Positions 14,568 through 42,380 of a stretch of 49,249 nucleotides of DNA are shown here, piece by piece (positions within the stretch are counted from its first letter, which is position 1; each line of letters starts with the position of its first letter). The translations under genes and the position numbers were made by a program. A model generated the notes under the pieces. It was given only the letters and a program-made list of their open reading frames with translations, was not told the DNA's origin and did not search any database. The stretch is from Anaerolineae bacterium (lineage in GTDB: Bacteria > Chloroflexota > Anaerolineae > J102). Where the stretch lies: positions 1 to 49,249 of the forward strand of contig JALWZT010000233.1 of the NCBI GenBank assembly GCA_027002405.1, written 5' to 3'.

Positions 14568-15917
14568 ATGCAAGTCTTCGAATCGATTACCGCTGCGCAG
14601 CTCAAAGGCCCGACGCATCTCACCATCGGCAGTTTTGATGGCATGCATCGCGGCCATCAGGCTTTGATCGCGACCATGCAGGCCGCGGCTCGGGCCCAGG
14701 GGGCTGCGTGCGGGTTGCTCACCTTTCACCCTCACCCCCGCGCGGTGCTATACCCCGATCGTCCCGTGGCCAGCATCAGCTCCCTGGCCGAACGGCTCAA
14801 GCTCTATGCTCGGGCGGGGCTCGATTTCACCATTGTACATCCCTTTACCCGACAGACGGCTCAAACCGAGCCGGAAGCGTTCATGGATTTGCTCAAGGAG
14901 CATCTGGCCCTGACGGATTTGTGGGTGGGTCCCGATTTTGCCTTGGGGCGCAACCGGCGGGGCGATGTGCCTTTCCTCCAGGCTTATGGTGCAAAAATCG
15001 GTGTGCACGTGCATGTGGTGGATGAGTTCCGCTGGGAGGGGATCGCGGTGCGTTCTTCTCACATCCGGCAAACCCTGACCTTGGGGAATGTGATGTGGGC
15101 CAATGTGTGGTTGGGGCGCTTTTTCACCATCTCGGGCGTGGTGGTGTATGGGGACCAGCGGGGGCGCACGTTGGGATTCCCCACGGCCAATATCGCGGCT
15201 TCCCATAATCGAGTCCACCCGGCCGATGGGGTGTACGCGGCCTGGGCCGATGTGGAAGGACGACGCTTCCCCGCGGTGGTGAATATCGGGGTGCGCCCCA
15301 CAGTCAACGGGCGTCAGCGTACCATCGAAGCCCACATCATTGATTTTGACGAAGATATCTATGGCCGCTGCTTGCAACTCGCGTTTGTGACCCGCCTGCG
15401 GGATGAGATCCGCTTTCCTAACCTGGAAGCGCTGAAAGCGCAAATTGGCCGAGATAAAGACCTGGCCGCGTGGTTGCTGGCCCAGGACCCCCAGCTCCCC
15501 GATTATGAGCGCTATCGGGAATGGGCCTATACCGCGGATTGGGGGGTGGATGTTTTTGGTGATTCACCGGAGGCCCTGTTCCTCCACGCAGCCATTGCCA
15601 TGTTCGGGCTTCAGGCCGCTTATGATGTCCAGGGCCCCACATTGCAACAGGCCATCGAAGTGGAAGGCGCAGACCGGGAGGATTTGTTGGTCAGTTGGTT
15701 GAGCGAGTTGCTTTGGCAGCAGGAAACCCATGGCCTCATGATGCAGTATGGGGTCATTCGGGAATTGACCGAAACCCGGTTGCGGGCCTTGGTTTTTGGG
15801 CGAGCCGGTCCCAGTGATCTGGCTCATATCAAGGCTGTCACGTACCATGATTTACATATCGAACCTCCCACTGCCAGCCGGGCGTTGTGGCACGCCCGCG
15901 TCCTTTTTGATACCTGA
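14568..15917 (+). CDS. ribF: Riboflavin kinase/FAD synthetase with C-terminal archease domain
   Basis: The first roughly 305 residues are a normal RibF, making FMN and FAD from riboflavin. The nucleotidyltransferase part has GSFDGMHRGH (22-31) and LTFHPHPRAVLYP. The kinase part has GRTLGFPTAN (199-208) and VNIGVRPTVNG. Standard RibF ends near 310 residues, but this protein continues to 449. The extra part matches archease, the activator of the RNA ligase RtcB: YTADWGVDVFGDSPEALF (321 onward, for the family HTAD-x-G), AIEVEGADREDLLVSWLSEL, KAVTYHDLHIE (422 onward) and a terminal VLFDT. The two expected metal-binding aspartates appear as D324 and D448. No RtcB gene is in the window. The start abuts a repeat and lacks a Shine-Dalgarno sequence. 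Confidence 0.88.
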   Translation: MQVFESITAAQLKGPTHLTIGSFDGMHRGHQALIATMQAAARAQGAACGLLTFHPHPRAVLYPDRPVASISSLAERLKLYARAGLDFTIVHPFTRQTAQTEPEAFMDLLKEHLALTDLWVGPDFALGRNRRGDVPFLQAYGAKIGVHVHVVDEFRWEGIAVRSSHIRQTLTLGNVMWANVWLGRFFTISGVVVYGDQRGRTLGFPTANIAASHNRVHPADGVYAAWADVEGRRFPAVVNIGVRPTVNGRQRTIEAHIIDFDEDIYGRCLQLAFVTRLRDEIRFPNLEALKAQIGRDKDLAAWLLAQDPQLPDYERYREWAYTADWGVDVFGDSPEALFLHAAIAMFGLQAAYDVQGPTLQQAIEVEGADREDLLVSWLSELLWQQETHGLMMQYGVIRELTETRLRALVFGRAGPSDLAHIKAVTYHDLHIEPPTASRALWHARVLFDT

Positions 15918-15920
15918 ACC

Positions 15921-16667
15921 ATGCCTGTTCTTGTTCCAGGGCTGACCGGCACCCTCATCAACACCACCACAGTCATTTTAGGCAGCCTCATCGGCATCTT
16001 TGTGGGGCATCGCCTGAGCGAACACACGCAAAACACGGTCCTCCACGGCCTGGGGCTGGTCACCTTGGTGGTGGCCATCAGCAATGCCATCACCACCCAA
16101 AACATCCTCATCCCCCTGTTTGCAGTGGTTCTGGGAGCCATGCTGGGGGAATGGATGCAGTTGGAGGAGCGATTGGACCGTTTGGGGCACTGGATGGAGC
16201 GGACCTTTGGTCAACGCCTGGGGGAAAAGGATGAAAATCGTCTGGTCCAGGCTTTTGTCACGGCCAGCCTGGTTTATTGTGTGGGGCCTCTCACCATTTT
16301 GGGGGCTGTGCAAGATGGTCTGGTGAATAATTACCAGTTTCTTTTGTTGAAAGCTGTGTTGGATGGGTTTGCATCCATTGCCTTTGCCGCCAGTTTAGGG
16401 CCTGGGGTTATTCTTTCGGCCATCACGGTTTTCGTATTTCAGGGAGGATTGGCCCTGACAGCCATGGTATTTAGCGGTGCCCTGGGAGGAATCACCGCGG
16501 ATCATCCTGCGGTGATCGAGATGACAGCCACGGGCGGCATTGTGCTGTTGGCGATAGGGCTGATTCTTTTGGAGATAAAACGATTACGCGCGGCGAATTT
16601 TCTCCCCGCCATTTTCTTGGCCCCTGTGCTGGTGGTTCTGTTACAATGGTTGGGAATCTCATTTTAA
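15921..16667 (+). CDS. DUF554-family membrane protein
   Basis: This 248-residue integral membrane protein belongs to the DUF554 (YqgA/YdfK-like) family of uncharacterised putative transporters. The family start GTLINTTTVILGSLIGIFVG is clear, followed by GLGLVTLVVAIS, FAVVLGAMLGEWMQLE, an acidic cytoplasmic loop (LGEKDENRLVQAF), and CVGPLTILGAVQDGLVNNYQFLLLKAVLDGFASIAFA, which is strongly conserved in the family. About six to seven helices are expected. It starts 3 nt after the ribF stop and is likely co-transcribed with it. The substrate is unknown. Confidence 0.88.
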   Translation: MPVLVPGLTGTLINTTTVILGSLIGIFVGHRLSEHTQNTVLHGLGLVTLVVAISNAITTQNILIPLFAVVLGAMLGEWMQLEERLDRLGHWMERTFGQRLGEKDENRLVQAFVTASLVYCVGPLTILGAVQDGLVNNYQFLLLKAVLDGFASIAFAASLGPGVILSAITVFVFQGGLALTAMVFSGALGGITADHPAVIEMTATGGIVLLAIGLILLEIKRLRAANFLPAIFLAPVLVVLLQWLGISF

Positions 16668-17142: not shown

Positions 17143-17430
17143 TTACGACCCCTTTTTCCTGGACGCGTATTCCTCCAGGTTCATGATCACGAACAGCCGG
17201 TATTCGACACTTTCAGGAAGCTGAGGGGGAGTGTTGCGCAATTGGTGCACCAGATAGAGGGTTTTATTCAAGGTATCGAAAACAACGCGACAATTCTCGC
17301 ATACCGCGAGGTGGGCTTCCAGCTCCGAACAGAGTTCGGGGGATAATTCCCCATCGATATAATCGTTGAGATGAATCAACACTTCCTGACAGGTGTCCAG
17401 GGAGGCATGGGGGTTATGAGGGTTCATCAT
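17143..17430 (-). CDS. Zinc-type anti-sigma factor
   Basis: This 95-residue protein looks like a soluble ZAS-type anti-sigma factor that holds the adjacent ECF sigma factor inactive. A conserved segment CQEVLIHLNDYIDGELSPELCSELEAHLAVCENCRVVFD includes the signature H40-x3-C44-x2-C47 and an earlier C14. There is no transmembrane helix, so it should be cytoplasmic, possibly redox- or metal-responsive. Starts at residue 1 or 2 (adjacent ATGs) are both possible. It lies 30 nt downstream of the sigma gene in the same operon. Confidence 0.85.
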   Translation of the reverse strand: MMNPHNPHASLDTCQEVLIHLNDYIDGELSPELCSELEAHLAVCENCRVVFDTLNKTLYLVHQLRNTPPQLPESVEYRLFVIMNLEEYASRKKGS

Positions 17431-17460
17431 AATCGACAGGAGGAAGCGTTGCTCGGTGTT

Positions 17461-18060
17461 TCAGGTAAAATAGGGGGCAAGTATCTCACGCAAGCGTAAG
17501 CGGGCCCGATGGAGGCGGACTTTCGTGGCCGAAATACTGATGCCCAGCATGTTGGCGGTTTCTTCGGTGCTATAACCTTCGACCTCGCGCAGGATGAAAA
17601 CCGTGCGTAGTGTTTCGGGCAGGGACGCGATGGCTTTTTCCAGGACATCGCGGATCTCGCTATTCATCGCGTGGTCGTCAGGGGCCAGGGTGGCATCACG
17701 CACTTCGCGATAGACATCATCGCCTCCTTGGATCTCGATGGGGTCGTCCAGCGAGAGTTCGCGATGTTTATGCTTGCGCAGATGCATCAGTGCGGCGTTG
17801 GTGGCGATGCGATGCAACCACGTGTTTAATGCGCTGCGTTCTTCAAATCGGTGGATGTTTTTGCATGCGCTGATAAAGGTTTCTTGCAAGACCTCTTCCG
17901 CATCGTTGGGGTCATTCAACATGCGGATGGCAATGGCATACACGCGTGGCGCGAATTTTTTGATCATGCACGCGCATGCTTCGGGATCGCCGCGTTTAAG
18001 GCCTTGGATAAGGGCGGCCTCATCCGGGTAGATGTCAAGATCAATTTTGATTCCAGTCAT
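17461..18060 (-). CDS. ECF-type RNA polymerase sigma factor
   Basis: This protein, 199 residues from the chosen ATG, is a group 4 sigma-70 factor. Region 2 is FAPRVYAIAIRMLNDPNDAEEVLQETFISACKNIHRFEERSALNTWLHRIATNAAL, with the typical core-binding and -10-recognition residues. Region 4 is ALASLPETLRTVF-like (AIASLPETLRTVFILREVEGYSTEETANMLGISISATKVRLHRARLRLRE), with the helix-turn-helix. A TTG start at 18069 is also in frame, but ATG 18060 is preferred. The following gene encodes a zinc-type anti-sigma factor, the usual regulatory partner. A perfect 9-bp inverted repeat lies about 34 nt upstream and may control expression. Confidence 0.94.
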   Translation of the reverse strand: MTGIKIDLDIYPDEAALIQGLKRGDPEACACMIKKFAPRVYAIAIRMLNDPNDAEEVLQETFISACKNIHRFEERSALNTWLHRIATNAALMHLRKHKHRELSLDDPIEIQGGDDVYREVRDATLAPDDHAMNSEIRDVLEKAIASLPETLRTVFILREVEGYSTEETANMLGISISATKVRLHRARLRLREILAPYFT

Positions 18061-18093
18061 TGGATGCAATGGGAGGGGAAGCCGTTACGATGC

Positions 18094-24699: not shown

Positions 24700-25114
24700 G
24701 ATACTATTTACGGAACAGTCACCATGAGCAATCGCTCACCACATAACGACGAAAATGGGGACGCAGATGTTCGTCATGCTGAGCGACCGAAGGGAGCGAA
24801 GCATCTAGCGAGCGAAGCGAGCGCCATGCCGTGTTTTTTGCGCTTCGCTAGATTCCTCGGTCGCTTCGCTCCCTCGGAATGACGTCGCGAGGCTCTATTT
24901 TCGGAACAGGCACCACGAGCGATGGCTCGCCGATACGGACGAAAATCGCTTGCGCCGACCAACGTCGACCAAAGTAGACCAACATGGACGATGGAGCTTC
25001 TTGGTCTATGTTCGTCCTATGGTCTATGTTGGTCTGATCGCTCATCAAGGTCTATGCGACCGACCTTGGACTTCGGACATTGGACCCTTTTCTTCGGAAC
25101 AGGAGGCATCACCT
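24700..25114. repeat. Intergenic repeat region before the CoA-disulfide reductase gene
   Basis: It contains the composite unit CTATTTACGGAACAG, boundary repeat (24704-24767), long-hairpin repeat (24772-24884) and CTATTTTCGGAACAG, then a diverged boundary repeat (about 24910-24950) and an inverted-word array of GACCAACAT and ATGTTGGTC type (about 24955-25065). That array can fold as a hairpin. AGGAGG (25101-25106) is the Shine-Dalgarno of the next gene. No coding sequence is supported before it. Confidence 0.7.
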
Positions 25115-26449
25115 ATGAAACTCATCGTCATTGGCGGCGTGGCCGCGGGCATGAGCGCGGCGGCTCGCGCCAAACGTCGGAATAAAGACCTCAAAATCAC
25201 GGTTTATGAAAAGTCGGGTTATGTCAGCTATGGAGCCTGCGGACTCCCCTACTTCATCAAAGGGGATATCCCCAAGGCCGAAAATCTGATAGTACGTACG
25301 CCCGAACAGTTCGCCAAACAAGGGATCGATGCCCGGATTCATCATGAAGTCGTGGATATCGATGTCAACGCGCATCGGGTGACCGTCAAGAATCTGGAAA
25401 CCGGGGAAACCTTCCAGGATGATTGGGATGAATTGCTCATCACCACGGGCGCGGTGGCTGTCCGCCCCCCTATCCCGGGATTGGACCTGCCCGGCATCTT
25501 TACCCTGCGCACCGTAGAGGATGGGATTGCCATCCGGGAATGGATCGAAAAGAAGCACCCCTGGCAGGCCGTGGTGGTCGGGGGCGGCTACATCGGGCTG
25601 GAAATGGCCGAAGCCCTGGCTGCCAATGGCATGTATGTGGAGGTGGTGGAGATGCTGCCCCAGGTATTGCCCAATATGGATGCGGACATGGCGGAATTGG
25701 TCCAGGTGGAGTTGCAACGCCAGGGAGTGACGCTGCATCTGAACAGCCTGGTGCGGGCTTTTAAGGGGGGTGATCGGGTGCAGCAGGTGATCGCCGGCGA
25801 TAAGATCCTGGAAGCGGACCTGGTTCTGTTCAGCGTGGGCGCCCGGGCCAACATCCCTCTGGCCCAGAAAGCGGGCGTGGCCATTGGGGAAACCGGCGCC
25901 ATTGCCGTGGACGACCATCAGCGCACCAATGTCCCCCATGTGTGGGCCGCGGGGGATGTGGCCGAGGCCTGGCATCGCGTGTTGAACAAACCAGCTTATA
26001 TCCCCCTGGGCACCACGGCCAATAAGCAAGGCCGCATCGCGGGCACCAACATCGCGGGTGGGGATGAGGCTTTCCCGGGCATTGTGGGCACCGCGGTGGT
26101 GAAAGTGTTTGATCTGGAGGTTGCTCGCACCGGCTTAAGCGAGCGCGAGGCCAAAGAAGCGGGCTTCAACGCCACCAGCATCACCATCAAAGCCCCTGCT
26201 CGGGCCCATTACATGCCCACCCATCCCCCCATCCATGTCAAACTGGTGTTCGAAAAAGGCACCAAGAAACTGTTGGGCGGCCAAATGGTGGGGAAAGAGG
26301 GCGTATCCAAGCGCATCGATGTCATTGCCGCGGCCCTTTATGATGGCTGGACCGTTTATGACCTCAAGAGCCTGGATTTGAGCTATGCGCCCCCCTTCGC
26401 GCCCGTTTGGGACCCCATCCTGATTGCCGCGAACGTGGCCAGTAAATAG
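25115..26449 (+). CDS. CoA-disulfide reductase/NADH oxidase-like flavoprotein
   Basis: This protein, 444 residues from ATG 25115, is a pyridine-nucleotide-disulfide reductase with a single redox cysteine. The FAD loop is VIGGVAAGMSAAARAKR. The active-site cysteine is C42 in SYGACGLPYF, as in CoA-disulfide reductases and NADH oxidases. The NAD loop is VVVGGGYIGLEMAEAL, and the second FAD motif is HVWAAGDVAEAWH. The C-terminal dimer domain has GTAVVKVFDLEVARTGLSEREA. The frame runs further upstream into repeats and was trimmed to the ATG after AGGAGG. It could reduce CoA disulfide, polysulfide or oxygen. The sequence does not decide among these. Confidence 0.92.
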   Translation: MKLIVIGGVAAGMSAAARAKRRNKDLKITVYEKSGYVSYGACGLPYFIKGDIPKAENLIVRTPEQFAKQGIDARIHHEVVDIDVNAHRVTVKNLETGETFQDDWDELLITTGAVAVRPPIPGLDLPGIFTLRTVEDGIAIREWIEKKHPWQAVVVGGGYIGLEMAEALAANGMYVEVVEMLPQVLPNMDADMAELVQVELQRQGVTLHLNSLVRAFKGGDRVQQVIAGDKILEADLVLFSVGARANIPLAQKAGVAIGETGAIAVDDHQRTNVPHVWAAGDVAEAWHRVLNKPAYIPLGTTANKQGRIAGTNIAGGDEAFPGIVGTAVVKVFDLEVARTGLSEREAKEAGFNATSITIKAPARAHYMPTHPPIHVKLVFEKGTKKLLGGQMVGKEGVSKRIDVIAAALYDGWTVYDLKSLDLSYAPPFAPVWDPILIAANVASK

Positions 26450-39833: not shown

Positions 39834-39893
39834 TAACCAGTTTGAACGTTGTCATTATCGTTATCTCTCGCCAAAAGGACAACTTCCGGGATC

Positions 39894-42380
39894 ATGTTTT
39901 TCAAAAGCTATATTCCTGAACAAGAACGCGTCGAGGCCAATCGTAAGCTGCCCAAACTGTTGGTAGAAGGCCTGCTGTTGGGTGGCACGGGCCTGGGCGT
40001 CTTTGCCTTGATTTTTGAGATCGCGGCGGATGCCTTCAGTGTTGCGGCCTATCAGACCCTGTTGGCTATCCATGGTGCAGCGGGGTATCATATGATCGCG
40101 ATCTGGGCGTTCGTGGTGCTTTCGGTGCTGCTCTATTTTGGCATCGTGCCCGCGTACAAAGCGGGGAGCTATTTGCGGCCCAATGCCGGGGGCAGTGGTC
40201 CCATGGTGGAGGCCATCGGCCCTGGCTGGCTACGATGGCTTTCCTGGGTGGGGACCAGCCTCTTCTTTGTGGACGCGGTGCTCACCATCATTATCAGCTC
40301 CATCTCGGCCGCGGATGTGACCATGTTGGTCATGCCCGAGCTGGCACCGTATCGGATTCTGTTGGCGGAGTTTTTCGCCTTTTTCATTATGGTGGTGCTG
40401 GTGCTGATGGGGCCCAAGCGGGCCGTTCCCCTTTTCCTGATCGGTGGCGGGGCCTTTACCCTTTTCACTTTGGGTGCCCTCACCCTGGTGGGGGTCGAAG
40501 CGTTGATTCATCCCGAATGGGCCTTTCTTACCGATGGCATTATCCGGCGTCTTCAGGCCGCCAATGTGGTGGAGCATGTGGTGCGCGCCCAGCAGGATAT
40601 GGTCGCGCTGGGAACGGTCATCATCTTGCAACTCTTTTTCCGGTCCATGTCCAGCGCCATGCTGGGTTTTTCGGGTTACGAGGTGATCCCGGCCAGCGGT
40701 AAACATGCGGCCCGCCCCAAATGGAAAGTCATCAGTGTGGCTCTGACGCTGGCCGCCCTTTTCCTCATTGGTACGGGGGTGGCCCAACTTTACGCGGCCA
40801 ATCGCTGGCAGATCCCTGCCACCGAAGGTTACAGTACCCTTCTCATCGAATATGAGATTGTGGCGACCCAGGCCATGAGCCCAGGGGTGGACCCCACACA
40901 GATTCAGGTCACCAAGGCCGATGAACTGGCGGCCGAGGCCATCTATGCCGAAGAGGCCCTGGCCAACCCCTTTGAAGGGATTTTGGGAGGGAGAATCCGT
41001 CCGCCCCAGCCTCCGCCCCCGGATCACGAACAATTCATCAAAGATGTTTCCTATGACATCGCGGTCTCCCGGGCCATCACCCAGACCCTGGCCGGGAGCG
41101 TGGGCGCCACGTTCCTTTTTGTGGCGGGGACTTTGATGGCCATCATCCTGCTCTTGGCCCAGGGGGGCGGTTATGTAGGCGGCGCGGCCGTGGCTGCCAA
41201 TGCCGCGCGGCTGGGCCGTCTGCCGGGCTTTTTGCTGGATGACCGCATCGGCATCGCGATCATCTGGGGGGTCTCTGCCGTCCTCATTCCCATCATCAAG
41301 CAAGTGGTCGTGGTAGAAAGCTACTATGCCTTCGGCTTTGTCAGCGCGTTTATCATCACCAGTACCGCGGTATTTTTTGTGCGGAATGATGTGCTGGAAA
41401 AGAAAGGCATCCGGCCCGGTTCGGCCGAGGCCCGCACCCTGCGCTTTGCCGGGGCCCGAGGGATGTTTGCCAGCTACCTGATGGGCGCGGTCTTGGTGGT
41501 GGAAAAGACCCACGCCCTCTATGCAGTGGCACTCGCGGGCGCGGCGATCACCGTGTTCCAAATCCTGGTGGCCAATGGAGGATTTAAGAAACAGGATGTG
41601 CGCAAACTCATCGATGTGATTGTTTCTCAGACGGATCGCTTCAAACCCCATTCAGGCATCGAACGGGCTATCGAACAGGCACGCCAGCGAGGCATTGCCG
41701 ACGCCCTGGAAGACCTCCATCATGAAGGGCGTCTGGTCAAATTCAATGTGGACTTTTGGCGGGTGCAAAGGCTGGTGGCTTATCTCTATAACCTGGATCC
41801 GAAGGTTTTCGATAAAGGGGAACATGAGGACGAACGGATTGAGGAACCCAATCTCATCCTGGCCGAAGCGTATGAACGAGCTTATGCCCAAAAGGAACAG
41901 ATTCTAAAACGGATCGAACGATACTCCCACTTTGGGATTTTCATGTTCATCCATAATTACCATGTCAACTGGATCGCTCCCGAAACGGGCCGCTCCGCGG
42001 AAACGGTCCAGCAGGCCATGATTCACATCCTCTTCCCCCTGACCCCGCCCGAAGAAATCTGGGCCGAATATCAGGCTTTTAAGCCGGTTCGCCAGCCCGA
42101 GGAGATATGGCAATTCAGCCGACAACGCTATTTATGGGCAAAGGATCAATGGCCCAACCTGTCGGACCGCATTACCACCATCTGGACCTTGCAGGATTTT
42201 GGTCTTTTGCCTAAGGATATTTCTTTTGATATGGTGGTTACCGTGGCCAATGGGAAAGAATTTCGGCGGATTCATGTGCATGCCACCGCTCCTAGAGGAG
42301 AACAAAGGACCATGGTGGAAAGGGATGAGGCCTCGCCCTCGGGAGAAGAAGATCTCCCATTCTCAGAGGAGTCGTCATGA
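39894..42380 (+). CDS. Large APC-type membrane permease with C-terminal cytoplasmic domain
   Basis: This protein, 828 residues from ATG 39894, looks like an amino-acid/polyamine/organocation-type transporter with unusual additions. Roughly residues 20-560 contain about a dozen hydrophobic segments (for example LLVEGLLLGGTGLGVFALIF, ILLAEFFAFFIMVVLVLMG and AIITVFQILVA-like stretches), with SMSSAMLGFSGYEVIPASG resembling APC motifs. A loop of about 80 residues around 320-395 is acidic and ends in a PPQPPPPD run. The last ~230 residues are soluble, with helices rich in charge (IERAIEQARQRGIADALEDLHHEGRLVKF). Substrate and family are uncertain. The stop TGA sits in a boundary repeat (GTCATGAGCG). 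Confidence 0.65.
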   Translation: MFFKSYIPEQERVEANRKLPKLLVEGLLLGGTGLGVFALIFEIAADAFSVAAYQTLLAIHGAAGYHMIAIWAFVVLSVLLYFGIVPAYKAGSYLRPNAGGSGPMVEAIGPGWLRWLSWVGTSLFFVDAVLTIIISSISAADVTMLVMPELAPYRILLAEFFAFFIMVVLVLMGPKRAVPLFLIGGGAFTLFTLGALTLVGVEALIHPEWAFLTDGIIRRLQAANVVEHVVRAQQDMVALGTVIILQLFFRSMSSAMLGFSGYEVIPASGKHAARPKWKVISVALTLAALFLIGTGVAQLYAANRWQIPATEGYSTLLIEYEIVATQAMSPGVDPTQIQVTKADELAAEAIYAEEALANPFEGILGGRIRPPQPPPPDHEQFIKDVSYDIAVSRAITQTLAGSVGATFLFVAGTLMAIILLLAQGGGYVGGAAVAANAARLGRLPGFLLDDRIGIAIIWGVSAVLIPIIKQVVVVESYYAFGFVSAFIITSTAVFFVRNDVLEKKGIRPGSAEARTLRFAGARGMFASYLMGAVLVVEKTHALYAVALAGAAITVFQILVANGGFKKQDVRKLIDVIVSQTDRFKPHSGIERAIEQARQRGIADALEDLHHEGRLVKFNVDFWRVQRLVAYLYNLDPKVFDKGEHEDERIEEPNLILAEAYERAYAQKEQILKRIERYSHFGIFMFIHNYHVNWIAPETGRSAETVQQAMIHILFPLTPPEEIWAEYQAFKPVRQPEEIWQFSRQRYLWAKDQWPNLSDRITTIWTLQDFGLLPKDISFDMVVTVANGKEFRRIHVHATAPRGEQRTMVERDEASPSGEEDLPFSEESS

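What the first reader, a model, noticed from the sequence alone, without database searches (positions are those of the whole stretch)
14568..15917. RibF fused to an archease domain
Seen: the frame runs without a break from a complete FAD synthetase/riboflavin kinase (about residues 1-305) into about 130 residues with the archease pattern: YTADWGVDVFGD, EVEGADREDLLVSWLSEL, KAVTYHDLHIE and a final LFDT, with acidic residues D324 and D448 at the expected metal sites. Established: archease activates the RNA ligase RtcB with metal and nucleotide, while RibF makes FMN/FAD. Inference: the fusion could link flavin supply to RNA repair, or simply keep a stable fused pair. I know of no description of this architecture.
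Basis: partly seen in the sequence, partly recalled or inferred. Interest (0 to 1): 0.8.

Follow-up and report, generated by a model that had tools for sequence, protein, structure and literature searches.

The report
FAD-making enzyme fused to archease
In one branch of bacteria (Anaerolineae), the enzyme predicted to make the vitamin B2 cofactors FMN and FAD carries at its end a whole second protein, archease, which is predicted to switch on the RNA-joining enzyme RtcB, and the join likely arose many times from genes lying side by side.

Summary
Window 14568-15917 encodes 449 residues without a break: FAD synthetase, riboflavin kinase and a C-terminal archease domain (85 bits, cut-off 25). 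It is no assembly error: 116 of the 120 best homologues carry all three domains. The genome holds one archease and one RibF (both this gene) and one RtcB, of the archaeal/human type, on another contig. Of 107 archease-bearing genomes among 150 of the class, 28 have the fusion (11 families), 33 have a separate archease gene directly behind ribF, and 67 have rtcB behind archease. Archease and the long RtcB type occur together (104 of 106; none of 25 genomes with only other RtcB types). So the fused part most likely still activates RtcB, and the fusion likely came from repeated merging of neighbouring genes; a single clade is rejected. No flavin-RNA-repair link was found: no FMN riboswitch, and some relatives keep RibF while archease has decayed. 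New architecture, likely ordinary function. No activity was tested. Caution: the usual histidine before the metal aspartate is Tyr321 here.

The parts
14568..15917 (+). CDS of the RibF-archease fusion, 449 aa, stop at 15915-15917
   Evidence: same chain in 28 of 150 genomes of the class
14607..15059 (+). FMN adenylyltransferase (FAD synthetase) domain, residues 14-164
   Evidence: PF06574 135.4 bits, cut-off 27
15111..15467 (+). riboflavin kinase domain, residues 182-300
   Evidence: PF01687 147.6 bits, cut-off 19.6; only Flavokinase match in the genome
15483..15512 (+). short linker, residues 306-315, between the last RibF helix (286-305) and the first archease strand (316-318)
   Evidence: secondary structure of the predicted model
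15513..15914 (+). archease domain, residues 316-449 (Pfam match 316-448)
15528..15530 (+). Tyr321, at the place of the conserved His9 of P. horikoshii archease (deviation)
   Evidence: alignment; 91 of 116 homologues have His, 17 Tyr; role of His9 from PMC3973293
15537..15539 (+). Asp324, metal ligand by alignment (human D51, P. horikoshii D12)
   Evidence: (113 of 116)
15831..15833 (+). Lys422, phosphate-binding lysine by alignment (human K156, P. horikoshii K117)
   Evidence: (112 of 116)
15909..15914 (+). Asp448-Thr449: second metal aspartate and the free C-terminal carboxylate (human D178, I179; P. horikoshii D141, I142)
   Evidence: 112 of 116 homologues end in Asp-[Thr/Val]

Best explanation
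The 449-residue protein joins a complete RibF-type FAD synthetase to a C-terminal archease domain, and that archease domain is predicted to activate the genome's separately encoded RtcB RNA ligase, while the fusion likely formed by repeated merging of a tightly spaced ribF-archease gene pair. Shown: the domains, the conserved metal and phosphate residues, the terminal position of the carboxylate, the single RtcB in the genome, the neighbouring-gene state in relatives, and the scattered distribution on the RibF tree. Inferred: RibF makes FMN and FAD as usual; the archease tip brings Asp324, Asp448, the C-terminal carboxylate and Lys422 to RtcB, holds the third metal and the GTP gamma-phosphate, and so promotes guanylylation of RtcB. 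Archease would be joinable only with its own C terminus free, because that carboxylate is a metal ligand; this would explain why it sits last in every fusion listed. RibF is then mainly a carrier that fixes a constant supply of archease, not a flavin sensor.
Against: Tyr321 replaces a histidine whose substitution severely reduced activity in P. horikoshii. In the family, 4 of 17 genomes with the fusion have no RtcB found although the archease site is intact (G141, G151, G156, G159; completeness 100, 81, 72, 91%); G079 of another family (85%) is a further such case. Fused archease domains score lower against Pfam than unfused ones (median 104 against 117 bits, p 5e-5). rtcB is next to archease in only 5 of 28 fused genomes against 62 of 79 unfused; by independent pairs on the tree this is not significant. 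The tree cannot tell gain from loss of the fusion. For the window's own gene dN/dS of the archease part could not be computed (saturated). No activity was measured.
Confidence: 0.77

Rival explanations
1. The fusion couples flavin supply to RNA repair: flavin state sensed by RibF would modulate the tethered archease, or RibF would feed a flavoprotein that protects RtcB, as the FAD enzyme PYROXD1 does in animals.
For: In animals a flavin enzyme (PYROXD1) binds the same RtcB surface as archease and protects the catalytic cysteine (PMC12263435 and PMC10944509 passages). ribF is the recurrent partner in the class: fused to or directly in front of archease in 61 of 107 genomes.
Against: No FMN riboswitch or other Rfam match in the window. 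Unrelated N-terminal partners occur in other archease fusions. The RibF part stays 75-84% identical to the window's in P0015-P0018 while the archease part is at 46-62% with lost site residues. Outside the class, 0 of 57 archease-bearing genomes show the fusion. A PYROXD1-like partner was not searched for.
Confidence: 0.08
2. The archease part no longer serves RtcB and has become a structural or regulatory tail of RibF.
For: P0015-P0018, P0031 and G015 keep a long tail although site residues are lost; Tyr321 in the window; four fused genomes of the family without a detected RtcB.
Against: The catalytic trio and the exact two-residue C terminus are kept in 110 and 112 of 116; low dN/dS in the genus; the genome has an RtcB of the kind that goes with archease and no other archease.
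Confidence: 0.1
3. The archease part serves another RNA enzyme, such as a tRNA methyltransferase, as reported for Pyrococcus abyssi archease.
For: Published effect on a tRNA m5C methyltransferase (as cited in PMC3973293 and PMC4275035 passages).
Against: Archease presence follows the long RtcB type closely (104 of 106) and rtcB is the usual gene behind it (67 of 107). The residues that contact the RtcB active site are what is conserved. Methyltransferase genes were not searched for.
Confidence: 0.04
4. Assembly or sequencing error, or a chance open frame.
For: None found.
Against: Many contigs and sources, 28 of 150 genomes in 11 families, named records DRQW01000205.1 and WFTO01000014.1 with the same chain.
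Confidence: 0.01

Closest known systems
Standalone archease (PF01951; P. horikoshii 4n2p, human 5yz1/8btx/8odp)
   Same: Fold (by model), metal aspartates, lysine, free C-terminal carboxylate, lone copy in a genome with one long-type RtcB
   Different: Joined behind RibF through a short linker; the usual His before TAD is Tyr321; not beside rtcB in this genome
Bifunctional RibF / FAD synthetase (TIGR00083; C. ammoniagenes 2x0k, T. maritima 1s4m)
   Same: Complete two-domain enzyme, residues 1-305, only copy in the genome
   Different: Ordinary RibF models end near residue 305 of this chain; this one goes on into archease
archease-rtcB tRNA splicing operon (Desai et al. 2014, PMC3973293)
   Same: archease directly in front of rtcB in 67 of 107 archease-bearing genomes of the class
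   Different: Here ribF is a third member in front of archease, fused to it in 28 genomes; in the window's genome rtcB lies on another contig
Other archease fusions found here (kinase-like AAA_33, 23S-IVP, SAF, CBS, or nothing recognised; P0156, P0158, P0160-P0168)
   Same: Archease is the last domain, ending FD[VI]
   Different: Different N-terminal partner; hosts not determined

Membership tests
Archease (PF01951) | Profile match over the curated cut-off | tested here: met
   85 bits, cut-off 25, positions 1-135 of 136
Archease (PF01951) | Archease fold | tested here: met
Archease (PF01951) | Two metal aspartates plus free C-terminal carboxylate one residue behind the second | tested here: met
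   D324, D448, T449 last residue; role from PMC3973293 and PMC10944509 passages
Archease (PF01951) | Phosphate-binding lysine in KA[VI]TYH | tested here: met
   K422
Archease (PF01951) | Histidine before TAD (common in the family, taken as not defining: 91 of 116 of these homologues have it) | tested here: not met
   Tyr321
Archease (PF01951) | Stimulates RtcB guanylylation and turnover | not testable with these tools
   needs purified proteins
RibF (TIGR00083) | Equivalog model over cut-off | tested here: met
   TIGR00083 250.3 bits, cut-off 184.35; NF004160 299.6, cut-off 295
RibF (TIGR00083) | FAD synthetase / riboflavin kinase fold and invariant residues | tested here: met
RibF (TIGR00083) | Makes FMN and FAD | not testable with these tools
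   needs enzyme assay
archease-rtcB operon | archease next to rtcB | tested here: not met
   In this genome RtcB is on contig C65, the fusion on C233
archease-rtcB operon | Genome has a long-type RtcB with its catalytic residues | tested here: met
   585 bits to P. horikoshii RtcB; DINC, NHF, IHCGSRG, HN and CHGAGR aligned

The most novel reading that the evidence does not exclude
RibF-archease is a flavin-gated activator of RNA repair: one protein that makes FAD and licenses RtcB, so that flavin status sets how much RNA ligase is active, a bacterial counterpart of the PYROXD1-RtcB link of animals.
Probability: 0.07. Interest if true: 0.85.

Novelty: new variant of a known kind. Interest (0 to 1): 0.5.

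Why it matters
It is a recurrent, apparently undescribed domain architecture, and it suggests a simple structural rule that can be tested: archease may be fused to anything in front but nothing behind, because its terminal carboxylate is a metal ligand. It also shows that archease can be away from its usual place beside rtcB and locked to a housekeeping enzyme, and that proteins now named only 'bifunctional riboflavin kinase/FAD synthetase' can hide a likely RNA-ligase activator. If the two activities were coupled, it would tie cofactor supply to RNA repair.

Tried and rejected
Rejected: sequencing error; a single origin of the fusion as one clade; an FMN riboswitch as flavin link (no Rfam match in the window). 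Not upheld: the idea that absence of RtcB always goes with decay of the fused archease. G015 fits (97% complete, no RtcB found, ruined site), but G079, G141, G151, G156 and G159 have no RtcB found and keep an intact site. Three of these are 85% complete or less and all are in 210 contigs or more, so the test is inconclusive. None of the 17 fused genes of the family has an eroded site, so the genomes that hold P0015-P0018 are not among the 20 searched with P0017; they were not sought elsewhere. The link 'fused means rtcB elsewhere' is strong by plain count (5 of 28 against 62 of 79) but not by independent pairs (6 pairs, median p 0.5). G220, the only archease frame over 400 aa outside the class, has no RibF in front. 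The scan of named genomes used a single protein and gave 5 loci only; its three fused loci look like the records of G072, G156 and G157, so they are not further genomes.

Rows dropped or uncertain: of the 28 fused, G141 and G129 are cut at a contig end within RibF, G010 has a partial RibF match, and G015 has the eroded archease. G132 (RibF and archease each reach a contig end, possibly fused) is counted as unlinked and was left out of the independent pairs only. G006 (30-residue archease fragment at a contig end) is counted as unlinked but is not among the 106 domains. G116's weak RtcB match was not in the listed rows, so crossed 131 of 132 RtcB genomes. The RibF tree holds 89 rows: 27 fused (not G141), 33 adjacent, 25 of the 46 unlinked, and 4 without archease. 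In the dN/dS run the RibF rows with G141 are discarded because the script mishandled gap codons, and 6 of 15 pairs of the other six genomes, including all 5 with the window's genome, had saturated archease synonymous sites. Four of the 120 listed homologues are under 390 aa and were not used for the residue counts; these four are not the same set as the four without a Pfam archease match (P0017, P0086, P0089, P0113).

Full report
What is there. Window 14568-15917 (+) is one open frame of 449 codons from ATG to stop. Pfam places FAD_syn at 14-164, Flavokinase at 182-300 and Archease at 316-448, all far over their cut-offs. NCBIfam recognises residues 1-307 as RibF (TIGR00083, 250 bits, cut-off 184; NF004160, 299.6, cut-off 295) and gives the tail only a sub-threshold match (NF001617, 60 bits, cut-off 126); where one search shows a source's own name for such a protein, it names the flavin part only. 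In the window's genome (4.3 Mb, 98.6% complete, 363 contigs) this is the only archease match and the only Flavokinase match, and there is one RtcB, on another contig.

It is real and widespread. A protein search gave 6367 homologues among 7998 scored, the best 120 listed; 116 of the 120 carry all three Pfam domains, and the organisms named are Anaerolineae, Caldilineae or Caldilineales, and Chloroflexi. Of the 120, 116 are 390 aa or longer: at the aligned columns D324 is kept in 113, K422 in 112, D448 in 112, all three in 110; 112 of 116 end in Asp-[Thr/Val]. A search with residues 308-449 alone, among proteins of fitting length, gave 35 proteins, all with RibF domains. Three named records (JALXCB010000012.1, DRQW01000205.1, WFTO01000014.1, all 'Anaerolineae bacterium') hold the fusion; their archease sequences are those of G072, G156 and G157. 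That the window's class is Anaerolineae rests on these titles.

The partner is there. The genome's RtcB (C65:573-2081, 502 aa) aligns to P. horikoshii RtcB at 585 bits with the metal and guanylylation residues in place. It stands in front of a phosphohexomutase-like and a TatD-like gene (my reading of the translations) and not beside archease.

The class. 150 genomes drawn evenly from the class (completeness 85% or more) were searched three times with the same settings: the fused protein (147 of 150 with a match), RtcB (132 of 150), archease (107 of 150, one match each). Crossing the tables (131 of the 132 RtcB genomes): 106 genomes have an RtcB match over 280 bits, and 104 of these have archease (exceptions G033, with a divergent 322-bit RtcB, and G127, 87% complete); of 25 genomes with only weaker, other RtcB types none has archease; archease without a strong RtcB occurs in G015, G079 and G141. 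The association is strong (Fisher p 1e-30), without correction for kinship.

Gene order. After checking frames: 28 genomes in 11 families have ribF and archease in one frame, 33 in 13 families have a separate archease directly behind ribF on the same strand, and 46 have no such link (107 in all; 23 of 46 families have the link in some form, 40 have archease). rtcB follows archease directly in 67 of 107: 5 of 28 fused, 23 of 33 adjacent, 39 of 46 unlinked (up to 1000 bases, or 2500 to the rear part of an RtcB with an intein-like insert). In several genomes the string is ribF-archease-rtcB (for example G026, G023, G096, G105). In the 33 adjacent pairs the archease domain begins between 17 bases before and 110 bases behind the ribF stop, and a possible ATG often overlaps that stop; 31 pairs are in different frames and two, G011 and G065, share one frame with one stop codon between. 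These are natural neighbours of the fused state.

Repeated origin. On a RibF tree of 89 rows (archease not in the alignment) the fused label needs 12 changes, at least 7 forced by well-supported branches; holding the fused rows as one clade costs 294 log-likelihood units (p-AU 4e-62). The tree cannot tell gain from loss, so an old fusion with repeated splitting is not excluded; adjacency on both sides of the midpoint root and the short step from adjacency to fusion favour repeated fusion (inference). Outside the class, none of 57 archease-bearing genomes of a phylum sample of 201 shows the fusion: only G220 has an archease frame over 400 aa, and no RibF is in it; two of the 57, G268 and G327, gave broken or partial archease matches and say little. 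In 16 loci fetched from outside the class no RibF match lies in the 1.4-3.5 kb taken.

The C-terminus rule. A search with the fused archease of another family (G039) listed 49 proteins; in all 48 not seen before the archease match reaches the last residue and ends FD[VI], whether the front part is RibF (37, one of them a fragment), a kinase-like AAA_33 domain (7), 23S-IVP, SAF, CBS or nothing recognised (1 each) (Pfam rerun for 6 of the 11 without RibF, precomputed domains for the others). In the class 103 of 106 archease domains keep D, K and the penultimate D; the exceptions are G136 and G148 (first Asp to Glu) and G015. This fits the published role of the terminal carboxylate as a metal ligand.

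Decay cases. P0015-P0018 and P0031 have lost archease site residues; their RibF part is still 73-84% identical to the window's, the archease part 34-62%. For comparison, eight of P0002-P0014 that were measured have 80-86% and 68-81%; more distant fusions with an intact site (P0019-P0022) have 65-68% and 51-58%. P0034 lacks only the proper end. G015 has no RtcB found and a ruined archease with an extended end. So RibF does not seem to need a working archease tail. Against a clean rule, four of the 17 fused genomes of the family have an intact site but no RtcB found (G141, G151, G156, G159), and so does G079 in the class sample. Within the genus the archease part is under purifying selection (dN/dS 0.06-0.13 in the 9 of 15 pairs computable; RibF 0.05-0.21 in 14 of 15). 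Fused archease domains have drifted more from the Pfam model than unfused ones (median 104 against 117 bits).

Flavin link. No Rfam family, hence no FMN riboswitch, reaches its cut-off in the window. A flavin enzyme, PYROXD1, does protect RtcB in animals and excludes archease while bound (PMC12263435, PMC10944509 passages), which keeps the idea alive but gives no direct support here.

Literature. Searches for archease with riboflavin, ribF, fusion and RtcB, gene fusion, Chloroflexi, Anaerolineae, operon and RNA repair, for RibF with domain fusion, and for SHS2 with riboflavin kinase listed no paper on RibF-archease by title or abstract start; archease together with ribF is in no held paper, and the one paper with both archease and riboflavin only lists subsystem names (PMC12282097 passages). 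A catalogue of vitamin-pathway fusions exists (PMC4921024 passages), but its supplementary tables could not be read, so an earlier listing there is possible. Desai et al. 2014 describe the archease-rtcB operon (PMC3973293 passages); PMC4275035 passages mention archease only as a chaperone-like precedent.

Verdict. A genuine, recurrent and apparently undescribed architecture of two known families. The best reading is a working archease carried by RibF after gene merger, serving RtcB in trans; a regulatory flavin-RNA link is possible but unsupported.

Noticed in passing
G072:C148, G111:C177, G127:C240, G045:C86, G093:C43 and others: In 21 of 106 strong-RtcB genomes the RtcB match resumes at model position 45-59 in a frame mostly about 1000 aa long, the first 50 positions lying about 1.5 kb upstream where listed: an intein-like insert (NCBIfam has intein-containing RtcB models). 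The window's own RtcB has none although genus mates do.
   Followed up: partly
P0156, P0158, P0160-P0164: Archease fused behind a kinase-like AAA_33/KTI12 domain, possibly an RNA-end kinase partner; hosts unknown.
   Followed up: partly
P0165, P0166, P0167: Archease fused behind 23S-rRNA-intervening-sequence, SAF and CBS domains.
   Followed up: partly
G025, G051, G055, G078, G131 and others: A second RtcB type (about 230-275 bits) and a type with split matches (about 150-226 bits); none of the 25 genomes with only such weaker matches has archease.
   Followed up: partly
window 15921-16667 (+): DUF554 protein starts three bases behind the stop of the fusion gene, likely co-transcribed.
   Followed up: no
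window 39849-42380 (+): 843-aa open frame without a Pfam match at E 1e-5.
   Followed up: no
window 24950-26449 (+): Pyridine nucleotide-disulphide oxidoreductase, presumably a flavoprotein, in the same window; no link to RtcB was tested.
   Followed up: no
window 17143-18069 (-): ECF-type sigma factor (17461-18069) followed by a short protein with an anti-sigma look (by eye only).
   Followed up: no
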